From Duncaniella muris (GTDB lineage: Bacteria > Bacteroidota > Bacteroidia > Bacteroidales > Muribaculaceae), in NCBI RefSeq assembly GCF_003024805.1, contig NZ_PUEC01000003.1, positions 1 through 64,000 on the forward strand: a DNA stretch of 64,000 nucleotides. The letters are read 5' to 3'. The notes beneath the pieces were generated by a model. That model was not told the DNA's origin. It worked only from the letters and a program-made list of their open reading frames with translations, and ran no database searches. Shown piece after piece: positions 1,348-41,900 of this stretch (the stretch's first letter is position 1; each line of letters opens with the position of its first letter). The translations under genes were made by a program, and so were the position numbers.

Positions 1348-1493
1348 TAGAGGAAAGTAACAATCTTAATATCATGATTCCGCAGTTACTATTTCTGTCG
1401 GAACGAGGCCTTATATGCCAATGTATCGTTTATGCAATATTTGGAAGCATATTACCTCATATACGGCAAATAGGATTTAGAGGAAAGTTACAA
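1348..1493. repeat. Pair of 16-nt direct repeats
   Basis: TAGAGGAAAGTAACAA at 1348-1363 recurs as TAGAGGAAAGTTACAA at 1478-1493, with one mismatch and 130 bp between the starts. The repeats could be protein-binding sites or relics of an element end. No function can be assigned. Confidence 0.5.
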
Positions 1494-1507
1494 AGAATTT
1501 TTGAGAT

Positions 1508-1543
1508 GGCAATCGGTTATGTCGTAAAACACAACCGATTGCC
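1508..1543 (-). terminator. Hairpin downstream of HTH gene, possible terminator
   Basis: GGCAATCGGTT (1508-1518) is perfectly complementary to AACCGATTGCC (1533-1543) with a 14-nt loop. It lies 14 bp beyond the stop codon of the minus-strand gene ending at 1557. The following minus-strand DNA is A/T-rich but lacks an uninterrupted T run, so termination is plausible rather than certain. Confidence 0.45.
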
Positions 1544-1556
1544 ACGGGGTTGATTG

Positions 1557-1868
1557 CTATTTTCTTGATGGGATCTGGTGCTGACGAAGAAAGGCGTCGA
1601 GGTCGGCGCGGTTGACGTAGATTTTGCGGCCTATCTGCGAGAAGGGGATGAGGCGTTGGTCGCGGTAGTTCTGCCACGTCTTGGGGGAGATGCCGAGGAG
1701 CTTGCGGGCTGCTTCGGATTCTATCCATTCGCAGTTGGCGTCATTGGCGTTGCGCCGGGTGATGAGGTCGATGATTTGCTCCAGCATGTCATGGAGGTTG
1801 CGCCATTCTTCTTCCGGCACTACGAACAGCAGTGTCGAGGGGTTGATATTTTGCAGGGTGCTTTGCAT
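1557..1868 (-). CDS. Small helix-turn-helix (excisionase-like) protein
   Basis: This is a 103-residue protein. Residues about 48-98 form an HTH_17/MerR-like winged helix: a WIESEAARKLLGIS segment, then TWQNYRDQRLIPFSQIGRKIYVNRADLDAFL, the usual pattern of excisionase-like domains. The N-terminal half (EEEWRNLHDMLEQIIDLI) is a predicted amphipathic helix that probably mediates dimerisation. Such proteins in Bacteroidales are usually carried by mobilizable or conjugative elements, next to integrases or mobilisation genes, and act as recombination directionality or transcription factors. It is transcribed away from a 1.1 kb dyad-rich non-coding stretch that may hold its own operators. Confidence 0.75.
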   Translation of the reverse strand: MQSTLQNINPSTLLFVVPEEEWRNLHDMLEQIIDLITRRNANDANCEWIESEAARKLLGISPKTWQNYRDQRLIPFSQIGRKIYVNRADLDAFLRQHQIPSRK

Positions 1869-2009
1869 TAGGGCGTGAGGGTTCTGATTCCATCTACAAA
1901 GAAGATAGAATCCGGTTGATAATTCAGTTGTCTAATCGCTTGACTTCTCACTCAACTGAATACGCAGCTGCCTGACCACTCAATCAACTGGTCACACAGG
2001 CGATTGACT

Positions 2010-2049
2010 GATTGGTTGAAGTGCTGACTAATCAGGTCTTCAACCAATC
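2010..2049. repeat. Perfect 12-bp inverted repeat
   Basis: GATTGGTTGAAG (2010-2021) is the exact reverse complement of CTTCAACCAATC (2038-2049), with a 16-bp spacer. It lies in the leader side of the small helix-turn-helix gene and is a candidate operator or recombination-accessory site. Confidence 0.6.
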
Positions 2050-2268
2050 AACCGGTTAATCGCGCAACTGCGCAGTCAGATGATTGGGTGGGTGATTGAT
2101 TGGGCAGGTGTATAATCAGTTGGGTTAAGTGTCGATTGAATAGCCGTGGGACCATATAGGCGGCAGCAATCGACGGTCGTAGGGGCGGTAACATTTACCA
2201 TCCACGCATAGGCGTGAGCCTATCGCGCTGAAAATCAATAGTGACTTGGCAGAGACTCAGTCGTGCAA

Positions 2269-2284
2269 CTGATTGGCCAATCAG
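2269..2284. repeat. 16-bp perfect palindrome
   Basis: CTGATTGGCCAATCAG is identical to its reverse complement. It repeats the TGATTG word found throughout the surrounding 400 bp, so it may be the strongest member of a family of binding sites. Confidence 0.6.
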
Positions 2285-2606
2285 TCAATCACCGTCATGT
2301 GTCATAGTATTATTAAGAGACATCTCGTATCATCGACCCGATTTTGGAGCCTCCCGTCGGAGGCGTTTCGTGTCGTTGACGTTGCAAAGTAAGGGATAAA
2401 TTTTCATTCCCACCAAACATTTTTGGCCAGATATAGTATAAGGTTGTACACGTATATAGCTATATACAATAGATATAGCTCCAACCGACGGAGAATCGCC
2501 CCAACTTTGCATCGAGCAACGGAAGCTACGTCCTCAGCATCCGCACAGCCTCTTAATAGGGACCACGACAGAGGCAATCCATTCAGTTTTTCTTATTGGA
2601 GAGTGT

Positions 2607-2699
2607 GCCCATTGGAGCACAGCAAGGTGTCCAAACAGTTACCGTTTGGATTTCGGGTAACTCTGCCGTTACCACGAAATAACCTTGCCGTGCCGGGGC
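2607..2699 (-). ncRNA. Candidate structured RNA, three-way junction
   Basis: The stretch can fold into a closed three-way junction. Positions 2616-2628 pair with 2682-2694 over 13 bp. Inside, 2630-2636 pair with 2644-2650 (7 bp, 7-nt loop) and 2651-2661 pair with 2668-2679 (11 bp with a single bulged base at 2674, 6-nt loop). An outer GCCC/GGGC (2607-2610 with 2696-2699) can extend the stem. In the outer stem two positions (2616/2694 and 2621/2689) are A-C mismatches in plus-strand RNA but G-U wobbles in minus-strand RNA, which favours a minus-strand transcript. No known RNA family was recognised, and a DNA role as cruciform or transfer origin is an alternative. Confidence 0.5.
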
Positions 2700-2992
2700 T
2701 TGGAACTGCTCCGAAGTCGCTGTCCCCATGTCTTCTTATAGTTTCACAGCCTCAAAGCATCCATTAAGGCATTCGCCAAATCAGATGAGACCATCCGTAT
2801 AACATTTGTATCGGCAAGAGAACGGCCGATGAGGTTGACGCTGCCTTACCACCCGATACATTGGTCGATGATGGCGCATTGCATCTTATTCGGTATTCAC
2901 GGTTACCGAAATATATCCATCTGATAACAACAGTATTACCAAATCGTCAGTCGCAACCGACGATTTGACCCATTGTGGGTGTCGACCCATAT
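2700..2992. other. Non-coding stretch downstream of ATP-binding regulator
   Basis: No gene is supported. It lies 3' of the minus-strand regulator gene ending at 2993. It contains the hairpin AAATCGTC/GACGATTT (2941-2948 with 2959-2966) and a short GGGT/ACCC hairpin just before the stop codon. Together these could end the regulator's transcript. Confidence 0.45.
2941..2966 (-). terminator. Hairpin 3' of regulator gene, weak terminator candidate
   Basis: AAATCGTC at 2941-2948 pairs perfectly with GACGATTT at 2959-2966 around a 10-nt loop. It is positioned 27 bp past the stop codon of the minus-strand gene. The T-tract is short. Confidence 0.4.
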
Positions 2993-4468
2993 TTATTCAA
3001 TGACCTCCCATGTGCCGGATTTCTCAGATCCGATCCTTCTTATTCGGTTAGATGTCTTAAGTGCATCAATAATTCGGAATAAGGTCCTTCTCGGAATATT
3101 TAGTTGGGCTGAGATTTCTTTAATGCTTATCCGCTTGTTTTTACGCATTAGATTCACAATCGCATCTTCACGAGATATTTTATCGGTGCCATCGGTGCCA
3201 TTATCGGTGCCAAATTCAGATTTATTGGTGCCATTAGTGCCATTTTCTGCTGTATTTACTATGACATGAGGCGTTTTTTCTATGACATTGGTGCCATTTT
3301 CTATGACATCGGCATTCTTAACTACTACCTTGAACGTTGTGTAATCGCCAAGCAAGAATTCAGCGGGATTACTCTTGTTTTCTTCGAGAAGTGTTGAAAC
3401 GGTATTCACACCGCTGCCGAAACGGTTGACATAACCAAGATTGAGCATTATCTCGGCTATGTTGGGATTGCGATAGTCTGTTTCGTTGGGAAAGTTCTCT
3501 AAGTTCACCTTGCCATATAAGTTGCCCGGATTGTCAATCTCTATACGGTCGCTATACTCGTAGAATTTTATCGGGGAATTGTTGCCGTTATAGGCACGGT
3601 GCATCACGGCGTTCATAGCGAGCTCGCGGATAGCTTCCCACGGATAGTTGATGCGTGGCTCTTCGCGCAACACGCTGACAAATTCAGGGCGCTTGCTTTC
3701 AATGGAATATTTAATGAAATACTCCAACTCTTTTAGCATTGAAATTAGATTCCCCTTGAAGCGGTTTTCTTTCAAAACCTTTGTGGCACGGTTTGTCCCG
3801 GCAAACTTAACATACTGAATGTATGCGCCGGGAATGAAATATTGGGGGTCGTGTCCGAGCAGAAGTAACCCGGCGTTGGTCGGGCAATTAAACCGTGTGT
3901 CGAAAAGGCGCAACGATGCCATCTGCTGGATAGGCGTGCGCTTATCCTTAGCTAATGTCGCGGGCGACACGGCTTTTGGCAGATACTCATTCTTGAACAA
4001 CTCCACATCAATGTCATCAATCGAGGCCTCGCGGCACGGACGGCCATCGAAAGAAGAACTATGTACCTGCCCTTTTTCGGTCAATATACGTTCCTCCTCC
4101 GTGTTCGCTTCCGCTTTCCTCGCTCCGATTCTAATCCAGATCACACCTTTATATCTGACCGGAGTGTCTTCGCTTGGCTGAACTTCAATAACCGCAACTT
4201 CTCCATCGGGAAAAGACTCCTTATATACCATCATCGCCGGCGGTGGAAGTATTGTTCCGGAATTGCGAAGCCCTGCGTATGAACGCAACTGCTCATCAGT
4301 GAATGTCTGCCCATCGAGATTTCCGTCATCATCGGCGCCAATAAGAAAATATCCCGGTTTCCTCGTGTTGCGTATATCGTTGGCAAACGAGCAGATTGCC
4401 TCCGACATCTTCTTGGTGTTGTCGGTGGATAACGTGCGCTCCACGCGCTCATTCTCTATGTCGCTCAA
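2993..4468 (-). CDS. AlbA-2/Schlafen-type ATP-binding transcriptional regulator
   Basis: The 491-residue protein has the architecture of putative ATP-dependent regulators. An N-terminal divergent AlbA-2 domain (about 5-130; ENERVERTLS, CSFANDI, YFLIGADDDG) is followed by a GHKL-like HATPase_c_4 domain (about 270-380; N-box RELAMNAVMHRAY, DNPGNL, RFGSGV). The C-terminus is a winged helix (about 440-491; ISIKEISAQLNIPRRTLFRII). Between ATPase and winged helix lies a low-complexity linker made of repeated Asn/Asp-Gly-Thr units. It is transcribed in line with the integrase gene upstream, 84 bp away, which supports membership of the same mobile element. Its target is unknown; relatives are frequent in mobile islands and near defence genes. 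Confidence 0.8.
   Translation of the reverse strand: MSDIENERVERTLSTDNTKKMSEAICSFANDIRNTRKPGYFLIGADDDGNLDGQTFTDEQLRSYAGLRNSGTILPPPAMMVYKESFPDGEVAVIEVQPSEDTPVRYKGVIWIRIGARKAEANTEEERILTEKGQVHSSSFDGRPCREASIDDIDVELFKNEYLPKAVSPATLAKDKRTPIQQMASLRLFDTRFNCPTNAGLLLLGHDPQYFIPGAYIQYVKFAGTNRATKVLKENRFKGNLISMLKELEYFIKYSIESKRPEFVSVLREEPRINYPWEAIRELAMNAVMHRAYNGNNSPIKFYEYSDRIEIDNPGNLYGKVNLENFPNETDYRNPNIAEIMLNLGYVNRFGSGVNTVSTLLEENKSNPAEFLLGDYTTFKVVVKNADVIENGTNVIEKTPHVIVNTAENGTNGTNKSEFGTDNGTDGTDKISREDAIVNLMRKNKRISIKEISAQLNIPRRTLFRIIDALKTSNRIRRIGSEKSGTWEVIE
3190..3305. repeat. GGTGCCAT tandem-like repeats inside the regulator gene
   Basis: The DNA encoding the linker repeats GGTGCCAT/GGTGCCAA several times on the plus strand, giving Asn/Asp-Gly-Thr-Asn/Asp units in the minus-strand protein. 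Such a repeat can change length by slippage and alter the linker between the ATPase and winged-helix domains. Confidence 0.55.
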
Positions 4469-4552: not shown

Positions 4553-5980
4553 CTATTTGTTGATTGCAGAAATCACAGCCATTATTTGCTCAGGAGCCAT
4601 GCCTTTCAGCAGTTCGATGGCTTTCTCTTCTTTCGACATTGAACTATCAGCTCCCTCCTGTGGCGCCATCTTGGGCTCAGATTTCTTTTTGAAGAGAGTG
4701 CGCAGGGTATTGTTGGTTTTGGATGTATCGAAGCTGCCCATGTATCGCTCGGTTGTAGCGAGATTGCTATGACCGAGAATATTCTTTATTGCAGACGATT
4801 CGGCTCCGGCCTCCTGCGCTATATGTGCAAAGGCATGGCGGCTGATGTGCATAGTAAGATTCGTTGTGATTTCTGCCTTCTCCGCAATCTTTTTCAGATA
4901 TTTATTGATAAGGGCGTTCTTGGCTGAAATCTGTTGGTAAAGCTGGTGGCGCAATTCCGGCTTCATTCTGTCCTTATCAGCTTGGGTGACAAATTTTGCA
5001 AACGGTGCTTCATTGTCAAGCAGCGGGAAGATGTAATCATCGGGCTTGACATCATCATTATGATAATACCGAAGTATATCCAAAGCCTGATCGACAAGCA
5101 AGAGGTCTCGGTCTTTATGGTTCTTGCCCATTTGGTAGTGCAACCTACCATTCTCCGTTACATTACGCCAGCGGAGTTGAATCAAATCAGCCGCACGAAT
5201 ACCTGCACAATAATAGCTGAACAGGAAATAATTCTTACAGTGCCATATCAACGACCCTTCTTCCAATTCGAGTGAGATAATGCGCTCCATCTCTGTATCG
5301 CTCAATTTTTCTTTCGTTGTCTTTACACCCTTATATTTGAATACGAGGAAGGGATCCTTCGATGCTTCCATTATTCCTACCTCAATCGCCCTATGTACAA
5401 GTGTCCGCAGGATATTGAACTGCACCTCGATTGTATTGGGGTGCAGAAGTTTTCCCGGTTCCCGCTCATTCTCCCACTTGTGGAGAAAATTGTCAAAACG
5501 AGTCAGTAAGTCAACAGTCAGGTCATCGACAGTTATATCAGCCATTCGGCGTTTCTTGCGAAATGCGTCAAGTTTATTGATGAGTCCGCAATACTTACGC
5601 CAGTTGCGCCAGCCACCGTTATCATATATCATCTGCGCCCGCTCACGCGCAAACGCTAAGAAAGATGGCGATACATATTCCGCATCCAGATTCTTTATAA
5701 CCTTAGCGGATGAAACATCGCCATCTGACGCCAATTCCTGATAAGCCTCATGAGCTTGCACAAGCATGAGGCGCAACTGCTCATTGAGAACTTTGGCGTC
5801 GGGAACATTCGCACGAATCCAGTTGTTGCCCTTGCATTGAGGATTGAAATCGTCAATGCGTTTCAATTGAATACCGGTCTTCTTCTTTGTTCGTTTACCC
5901 GCAGCCGTCACCATCAGATAGAGGTTGTACGTCTTATTGCGGGTTGGCTTATGGTCGAGTTCAAATCTAAATGTTGCCAT
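4553..5980 (-). CDS. Tyrosine recombinase (phage-type integrase)
   Basis: This is a 475-residue Bacteroidales integrase with an N-terminal arm-binding domain, a SAM-like core-binding domain (about 100-205) and a C-terminal catalytic domain. The catalytic set is visible: Arg262 (CAGIRAADL), Lys286 (MGKNHKDR), His378-x-x-Arg381 (HISRH), His404 (LGHSN) and Tyr413 (ERYMGS). The frame is open to 6052, but the ATG at 5980 is chosen. A perfect TATCTTTGC promoter box sits at 6017-6009, inside the upstream extension, and MATFRFELDHK is the usual family start. It should integrate or excise the surrounding island. No att pair was identified. Confidence 0.9.
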   Translation of the reverse strand: MATFRFELDHKPTRNKTYNLYLMVTAAGKRTKKKTGIQLKRIDDFNPQCKGNNWIRANVPDAKVLNEQLRLMLVQAHEAYQELASDGDVSSAKVIKNLDAEYVSPSFLAFARERAQMIYDNGGWRNWRKYCGLINKLDAFRKKRRMADITVDDLTVDLLTRFDNFLHKWENEREPGKLLHPNTIEVQFNILRTLVHRAIEVGIMEASKDPFLVFKYKGVKTTKEKLSDTEMERIISLELEEGSLIWHCKNYFLFSYYCAGIRAADLIQLRWRNVTENGRLHYQMGKNHKDRDLLLVDQALDILRYYHNDDVKPDDYIFPLLDNEAPFAKFVTQADKDRMKPELRHQLYQQISAKNALINKYLKKIAEKAEITTNLTMHISRHAFAHIAQEAGAESSAIKNILGHSNLATTERYMGSFDTSKTNNTLRTLFKKKSEPKMAPQEGADSSMSKEEKAIELLKGMAPEQIMAVISAINK

Positions 5981-6008
5981 CTTTGGGAGAGTATAAAGGT
6001 TACACTCT

Positions 6009-6052
6009 GCAAAGATACAACGAATAAATTTTACGTGCAATTTTACGTGCAA
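6009..6052 (-). promoter_or_regulatory. Integrase promoter with tandem 12-bp repeat
   Basis: On the minus strand TATCTTTGC (6017-6009) matches the Bacteroides TAnnTTTG box and would start RNA near 6004, about 25 nt before the integrase ATG. Two head-to-tail copies of TTTTACGTGCAA (6029-6040 and 6041-6052 on the plus strand) cover the expected upstream promoter box. They are candidates for repressor, excisionase or integrase arm sites. Confidence 0.6.
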
Positions 6053-6364
6053 AAATCTTACTTTTCCTTACATTGAAAGAAACTCAATTGAAAAATACCC
6101 AATTGTAATACGCTAATATTCAGCATAATTAAAATATATTTGAAAATATCAGAAAGCAATATCGGTAGTTCTGTTCTGGACACCTGTATCAACAGCAAGT
6201 GATTGATTTTCAGTACTTACGGGTTTTTAGCGCCAATTTTTGTCAGCAAATTGTCAGCAAAGGTCTGAAAAATCGGGAATTTTACACTCTTGAATCGGAC
6301 TGAATTGCTATGGTCTGTTCGATTTTGAATTATTTAACAATCTTTAATAAAGTGAGGTTGACAA
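6053..6364. other. Intergenic region between integrase and IS66
   Basis: No gene is seen in these 312 bp. The stretch is AT-rich and contains two copies of TTGTCAGCAAA about 12 bp apart near 6238-6262. This is where an attachment site for the neighbouring integrase might be expected, but no duplicated att sequence was found in the window. Confidence 0.4.
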
Positions 6365-41541: not shown

Positions 41542-41900
41542 TATCCGCCCAGACCTCGCTCGACCGGAGTCCGGTGGCCGGCTCAGCTCTCACTTTCAGA
41601 ATCAAAACATCAAATGAGCCGCCGCAAACCGGAAACCCGGCAACAAGGTAAATTTTGATTATTCAATTTTTTCCAACTCCTTTTCAGATCCAAAGACGAT
41701 CTGCGGGCTTCTGCCTCCACGAACCGGACGGAGAAGACCGGATGGCTGAGTGAAAGCCATGATGACTCTTCAGTGAAATAGACCACATCTTTTATTCACC
41801 TCTCTGTGGTCGCGGCTGTCACCCCGGAATTCATCAGTTTTCATCATCAGCCGCAGAATCGGAGCCACTGAAAAGGAAACAACATCAAACAAAAACAGAA
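41542..41900 (+). other. Long spacer upstream of rpsD
   Basis: This 359-bp gap lies inside the alpha set with no gene visible. Possible local stems include CCGGAGTCCGG (about 41569-41579) and CCACA/TGTGG pairing near 41783-41812. S4 represses its operon through a structured leader in several bacteria, so an S4-binding leader is a reasonable but unproven reading. Confidence 0.5.

What the first reader, a model, noticed from the sequence alone, without database searches (positions are those of the whole stretch)
2607..2699. Possible novel structured RNA: three-way junction on the minus strand
Three nested stems close a compact junction: 13 bp (2616-2628/2682-2694), 7 bp (2630-2636/2644-2650) and 11 bp with one bulge (2651-2661/2668-2679). 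Two pairs of the outer stem are G-U only when read as minus-strand RNA and A-C mismatches otherwise, which points to an RNA selected on that strand. It sits in a gene-free part of a mobile island between a regulator and an excisionase-like gene.
Basis: partly seen in the sequence, partly recalled or inferred. Interest (0 to 1): 0.6.

Follow-up and report, generated by a model that had tools for sequence, protein, structure and literature searches.

The report
Borrowed conjugation origin on mobile island
The folded element is, by position and covariation, not a new RNA gene but the DNA start site for conjugation (oriT) of a large family of gut-bacterial conjugative elements; here it sits on an integrase-bearing island whose relatives lack a nicking enzyme, so the island probably hitch-hikes between cells on another element's machinery.

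Summary
In detail: a three-way junction folds at 2616-2694 (z -6.8, minus strand) and its pairs covary strongly (20 of 32 change on both sides; 0/500 shuffles match). The interpretation, a novel minus-strand RNA, is not supported. In complete conjugative elements the homologue lies just upstream of mobA-mobB(relaxase)-mobC, divergent from traA, where oriT of CTnDOT/CTn341-type elements lies; 79 of 80 named CTnDOT-type relaxase loci carry the site there (the exception is cut by a contig end). The whole site is hairpin 1 (CGACTTYGGAG), a GCAAGG...CCTTGC junction and hairpin 3, all covarying, with interchangeable inner arms. Across the family both strands fold about equally well. In the window and most family copies it lies on islands without a detected relaxase (24 of 40 loci). 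One relative is a bounded 24.6 kb island at tRNA-Leu with restriction and other defence-type genes. In one genome the island's junction is 81/81 identical to that of a co-resident conjugative element, while flanks are 40-76% identical. Best reading: oriT mimicry by a relaxase-less mobilizable island in Bacteroidota. Transfer, nick site and any transcript are untested.

The parts
2702..2727 (-). oriT hairpin 1, with invariant CGACTTYGGAG (2709-2719) between covarying stem halves; on the mobA side in ICEs; candidate relaxosome recognition site
   Evidence: 34 distinct stems: 6.6 of 8 positions paired on average against 4.5 with shuffled partners; motif present upstream of mobB in 79 of 80 ICE loci; coordinates
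2622..2688 (-). oriT three-way-junction core: closing stem GCAAGGT/ACCTTGC, arm 2651-2679 and arm 2630-2650
   Evidence: fold; covariation; coordinates
   Evidence: a perfect stem of 5 bp or more in 44 of 48 distinct sites, 13% expected in shuffles
1484..2887 (.). block shared with related relaxase-less islands (HTH_17 gene plus non-coding oriT region); 2167-2729 is also shared with ICEs at about 74%
   Evidence: blastn
1557..1868 (-). HTH_17 protein, excisionase-like; on the side of oriT where traA lies in ICEs
   Evidence: PF12728, E 5e-13; position in islands
2993..4468 (-). Schlafen AlbA_2 / RecG-type HATPase regulator; island backbone gene
   Evidence: PF04326, PF13749; conserved in related islands
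4553..6052 (-). tyrosine integrase of the island
   Evidence: PF00589, PF13102, PF17293
6168..6184 (.). putative attachment-site copy (GTTCTGTTCTGGACACC) like the tRNA-Leu 3' end at the ends of the G057 island
   Evidence: 13-bp end repeat in G057 at tRNA-Leu(CAG); window position

Best explanation
The element is the origin of transfer (oriT) of CTnDOT/CTn341-type conjugative elements, carried by an integrative island whose intact relatives have no relaxase. When a CTnDOT-type ICE is active in the same cell, its MobA (MobC_2 family) and MobB (PF03432 relaxase) would recognise hairpin 1, the three-way junction and hairpin 3, nick the site, and pass the excised island through the ICE's MobC coupling protein and T4SS. 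The island's own integrase and HTH_17 factor would do excision and reintegration at tRNA-Leu. Shown by sequence: the structure, its covariation, its position in ICEs, absence of a relaxase in a bounded relative, near-identity to an ICE site. Inferred: nicking, recognition of folded (single-stranded or extruded) DNA, transfer in trans, any control by the ICE.
For: Covariation in 20 of 32 pairs, 0/500 shuffles. Position beside mobABC in 12 ICE-type loci and in 79 of 80 independently fetched relaxase loci. Pattern control: 19 hits, none for the reversed pattern in 392 genomes. A bounded 24.6 kb relative at tRNA-Leu without relaxase; 24 of 40 loci without MobA or MobB. Junction 81/81 identical between island L017 and the co-resident ICE L022, flanks 40-76%. 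An ICE copy of the site with mob and tra genes lies in the window's own genome (G000:C10).
Against: No functional test. Nick site not located. Relaxase absence in the window itself is limited by the contig end at base 1, and the window island looks reduced (the TOTE gene next to the site is missing). The mob genes of the own-genome ICE carry group II introns, and its junction is only 62% identical to the window's, so that particular ICE may not be the helper.
Confidence: 0.78

Rival explanations
1. A structured RNA (sRNA or leader) is transcribed on the minus strand, in the traA direction, and acts in conjugation control or in the relaxosome, as the self-encoded sgm-sRNA does for SGI1 transfer (PMC9299015).
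For: Strong structural covariation; G-U pairs favour the minus strand in the window group; SGI1 shows that an RNA encoded beside an oriT can be needed for transfer.
Against: Over 29 homologues the strands fold about equally (18 of 29 favour minus); no Rfam match; no sigma-70-like promoter on the minus strand at 2300-3000, though Bacteroidota promoters differ; hairpin 1 and hairpin 3 around it behave like oriT repeats.
Confidence: 0.1
2. A cis-acting DNA site of the recombination or regulatory system of the islands (integrase or excisionase binding region) rather than oriT.
For: Close to integrase and HTH_17 genes in the islands.
Against: In ICEs and across Bacteroidota it tracks mobA/mobB, not one integrase type; the attachment site maps to a tRNA-Leu end, about 3.5 kb away in the window.
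Confidence: 0.04
3. A dead oriT: a relic of an ICE that decayed into the island, no longer used.
For: The window island is reduced and cut by the contig end; some other copies are interrupted (L082, L084, L086).
Against: All three structures are intact in the window; the junction is kept at 80/81 against ICE L022 while neighbouring segments are at 52-69%; several separate relaxase-less island types carry it, and G092 and G057 share 16.1 kb at 99.8%, which suggests recent exchange.
Confidence: 0.08

Closest known systems
oriT of the conjugative transposons CTnDOT / CTn341 (mobABC operon)
   Same: Same place relative to mobA-mobB-mobC and traA; inverted repeats near mobA. The window copy's relatives in ICEs are this site.
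   Different: In the window no mob genes accompany it in the sequence at hand; the Muribaculaceae type has a three-way junction where most Bacteroides ICEs have an extended hairpin.
MGIVflInd1-type mobilizable genomic islands (oriT mimicry of SXT ICEs)
   Same: Integrase-bearing island, no relaxase, oriT related to that of an ICE, tRNA-sized attachment logic; cargo island of similar size (18-33 kb in PMC5704250, 24.6 kb here).
   Different: Different phylum, different relaxase class (MobH there, PF03432 type here), structured three-part oriT; mobilization shown there, only inferred here.
Salmonella Genomic Island 1 and its sgm-sRNA
   Same: Island that depends on a conjugative helper; structured site or RNA next to oriT (PMC9299015).
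   Different: SGI1 has its own mob module unrelated to the helper's oriT; here the site matches the ICE type, and no RNA is shown.
NBU1 / NBU2 / Tn4555 mobilizable elements of Bacteroides
   Same: Mobilized by CTnDOT-type ICEs; NBU1 also integrates at a tRNA-Leu end (PMC5704250).
   Different: They encode their own relaxase; the bounded relative of this island does not.

Membership tests
CTnDOT/CTn341-type oriT | Located between mobA and divergent traA of a mobABC-type ICE | tested here: met
   Met for homologues in 12 ICE-type loci and 79 of 80 relaxase loci; the window copy itself is not next to mob genes
CTnDOT/CTn341-type oriT | Inverted repeats near mobA | tested here: met
   Three covarying structures in the window copy and in ICEs
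CTnDOT/CTn341-type oriT | A nick site cut by the MobB relaxase | not testable with these tools
   Published nick-site sequence not available in the library; needs biochemistry
CTnDOT/CTn341-type oriT | Needed in cis for transfer | not testable with these tools
   Needs mating assays
Relaxase-less mobilizable island (oriT mimicry, MGI type) | Own integrase and excision factor, discrete ends | tested here: met
   Integrase, HTH_17 gene, 13-bp end repeat at tRNA-Leu in G057; in the window only the integrase-side end is present
Relaxase-less mobilizable island (oriT mimicry, MGI type) | No relaxase | tested here: inconclusive
   Met in the bounded G057 island and in the 50 kb read around the G092 island; in the window limited by the contig end. 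Only relatives of the relaxases used as queries would have been seen
Relaxase-less mobilizable island (oriT mimicry, MGI type) | oriT related to that of a helper ICE | tested here: met
   81/81 (L017) and 80/81 (window) identical to ICE L022 in the junction
Relaxase-less mobilizable island (oriT mimicry, MGI type) | Mobilized in trans by the helper | not testable with these tools
   Needs mating assays
Known structured RNA family (Rfam 15) | Covariance-model match above the gathering score | tested here: not met
   No match at the element in the window or in ICE loci; nothing relevant with the lenient search either

The most novel reading that the evidence does not exclude
The structure is also transcribed, and the folded RNA made from oriT takes part in relaxosome assembly or couples island excision to the helper: RNA-assisted conjugation in Bacteroidota, exploited by satellite islands.
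Probability: 0.08. Interest if true: 0.8.

Novelty: new variant of a known kind. Interest (0 to 1): 0.55.

Why it matters
CTnDOT-type ICEs are major gene movers in gut Bacteroidota. A searchable structural signature of their oriT (hairpin with CGACTTYGGAG, GCAAGG..CCTTGC junction, hairpin 3) lets one find islands that may travel on them without any mob gene, which gene-based searches for mobilizable elements miss. Several such islands carry restriction and other defence-type genes, so ICEs may be spreading these. The interchangeable inner arms offer a clean test of whether a relaxosome reads the shape of oriT rather than its sequence.

Tried and rejected
Novel sRNA: no Rfam match and no general strand bias. 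Coding conservation: homologues differ in length in steps that are not multiples of three (75-89 nt), so no frame is kept; the overlapping 114-aa frame at 2423-2767 has no Pfam match. IS110 bridge RNA: the shared block ends at 1484, short of the IS110 gene, and the related loci examined have no IS110 gene there. RteR: shown apart from oriT in PMC5729914. Plasmid or phage origin: no blastn match in either collection. A search for the missing half of interrupted oriTs in four genomes found nothing. Model R1, built from three-way-junction types, scores extended-hairpin oriTs poorly, so its counts understate the distribution.

Full report
CHECK. The structure is real. Window 2607-2699 minus folds at -48.7 kcal/mol (z -6.8) with the three stems described. 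The plus strand also folds into a three-way junction, and so does DNA of either strand. It is not in Rfam.

HOMOLOGUES. A DNA search found it in 11 of 297 genomes of the family and a covariance model in 29 of 397, including a second copy in the window's own genome. On nine sequences 11 of 32 pairs change on both sides, 0/500 shuffles as good. On 34 distinct sequences it is 20 of 32 pairs and 129 cells, again 0/500, and sliding the partners by 1-3 columns destroys it. That last alignment was fitted to the model, which leans in its favour; the first was a plain MAFFT alignment with the structure laid on by hand.

CONTEXT. In 12 ICE-type loci (L021-L024, L059-L064, L066, L080) the element lies just upstream of mobA, mobB (relaxase) and mobC (coupling protein) and divergent from a ParA-type traA (protein families; L064 is too short to show traA). 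Where the mobA frame start is clear it is about 40-100 bp from the element. This is the oriT position of CTnDOT/CTn341-type elements: from memory, the oriT of CTn341 was mapped within 100 bp of mobA (Peed, Parker and Smith 2010), and PMC5729914 describes an inverted repeat and nick site there. An independent scan with a relaxase alignment gave 80 loci in named Bacteroidota. All but L122, where the contig ends, have a CGACTTCGGAG hairpin followed by the GCAAG element, nearly always about 480 nt upstream of mobB; L097 and L126 are interrupted further on. A pattern for the architecture hits 16 of 392 Bacteroidales genomes and its reversed control none; 13 of its 19 hits have MobA and MobB alongside, 2 a MobA-like match only, 4 (the window among them) neither within the roughly 1.5 kb read.

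ANATOMY. Hairpin 1 (2702-2727) holds CGACTTYGGAG inside a covarying stem. The junction core (2622-2688) is closed by GCAAGGT/ACCTTGC. Hairpin 3 (2604-2621) has a gap-free stem of 5 bp or more in 44 of 48 distinct sites. The inner arms are interchangeable: L087 and L088, whose relaxases are 98% identical, have a three-way junction and an extended hairpin respectively. Folding rather than inner sequence is what is kept.

RNA OR DNA. No sigma-70-like promoter was found on the minus strand. The link to relaxase genes favours DNA. If the minus strand is the transferred strand, G-T wobbles would be tolerated there too; this is inference.

THE ISLAND. Of 40 loci in the context table (39 in the family plus L061 from another family), 14 have the MobB relaxase, 2 only MobA, and 24 neither within the stretch read, about 10 kb each side or to a contig end. 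Four of the 24 are interrupted copies. In G057 the island is bounded by a 13-bp repeat at tRNA-Leu (24.6 kb). It holds an integrase, a Schlafen-like gene, a TOTE-type primase-helicase, an HTH_17 gene, a type IIG restriction-modification gene and an Snf2/PLD helicase; the T4SS and relaxase genes detected in that region lie outside its end. G092 has a relative that shares 16.1 kb with it at 99.8% and has no detected mob or tra gene in 50 kb. In G074 the island junction is 81/81 identical to that of the co-resident ICE L022, while neighbouring segments are 40-76% identical; the window copy is 80/81. The window's island has a putative att copy at 6168-6184 and is cut by the contig end at base 1.

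NOVELTY. Relaxase-less islands that copy an ICE's oriT are known in Gammaproteobacteria; the 2017 review lists relaxase-less IMEs in Firmicutes and Proteobacteria only (PMC5704250). Literature searches found none in Bacteroidota, but only an open-licence library was searched. The oriT of CTn341 is known; a covarying three-part structure was not found described.

LIMITS. No functional data; nick site unknown; relaxase absence in the window limited by the contig end and by the queries used; distant relaxases could be missed; the position of the CTn341 oriT rests partly on memory.

Noticed in passing
L082:9928-10007, L084:9953-10036, L086:3549-3630, L097 about 3430-3500; possibly L081 and L126: oriT copies broken inside the closing stem, right after ACACC or ACCTT; beyond the break L082, L084, L086 and L097 share about 300 nt that look structured (CGTAGGAA..TTCCTACG) and match no Rfam family. 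Perhaps an integrative element or end that targets oriT, or a repeated chromosomal site.
   Followed up: partly
L059 (G000:C10), L080; also ORFs in L024 and L066: Group II introns inserted in mob genes of the ICEs (Rfam matches in L059 and L080); similar large insertions split mobB or mobC in L066 and L024.
   Followed up: partly
L007/L020 (G055:C25:5061-5180) and L095: Insertions inside the inner arm of oriT (33 bp in L020, about 77 bp in L095) that leave the closing stem intact.
   Followed up: no
L064 and L066, beside the oriT: An 11-bp tandem duplication (CTATGTTCTTG) at hairpin 3, absent from the close relative L063.
   Followed up: no
L078 and L079: Islands with integrase-type backbone and oriT plus a MobA-like gene but no relaxase found: possibly recruit the ICE relaxase with their own accessory protein.
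   Followed up: no
window 1900-2330: Many short CAATCA/AATCAGTT-like repeats in both orientations beside the HTH_17 gene, possibly binding sites.
   Followed up: no
window 41781-41818: S4-Bacteroidia ribosomal protein leader, an ordinary known RNA.
   Followed up: no
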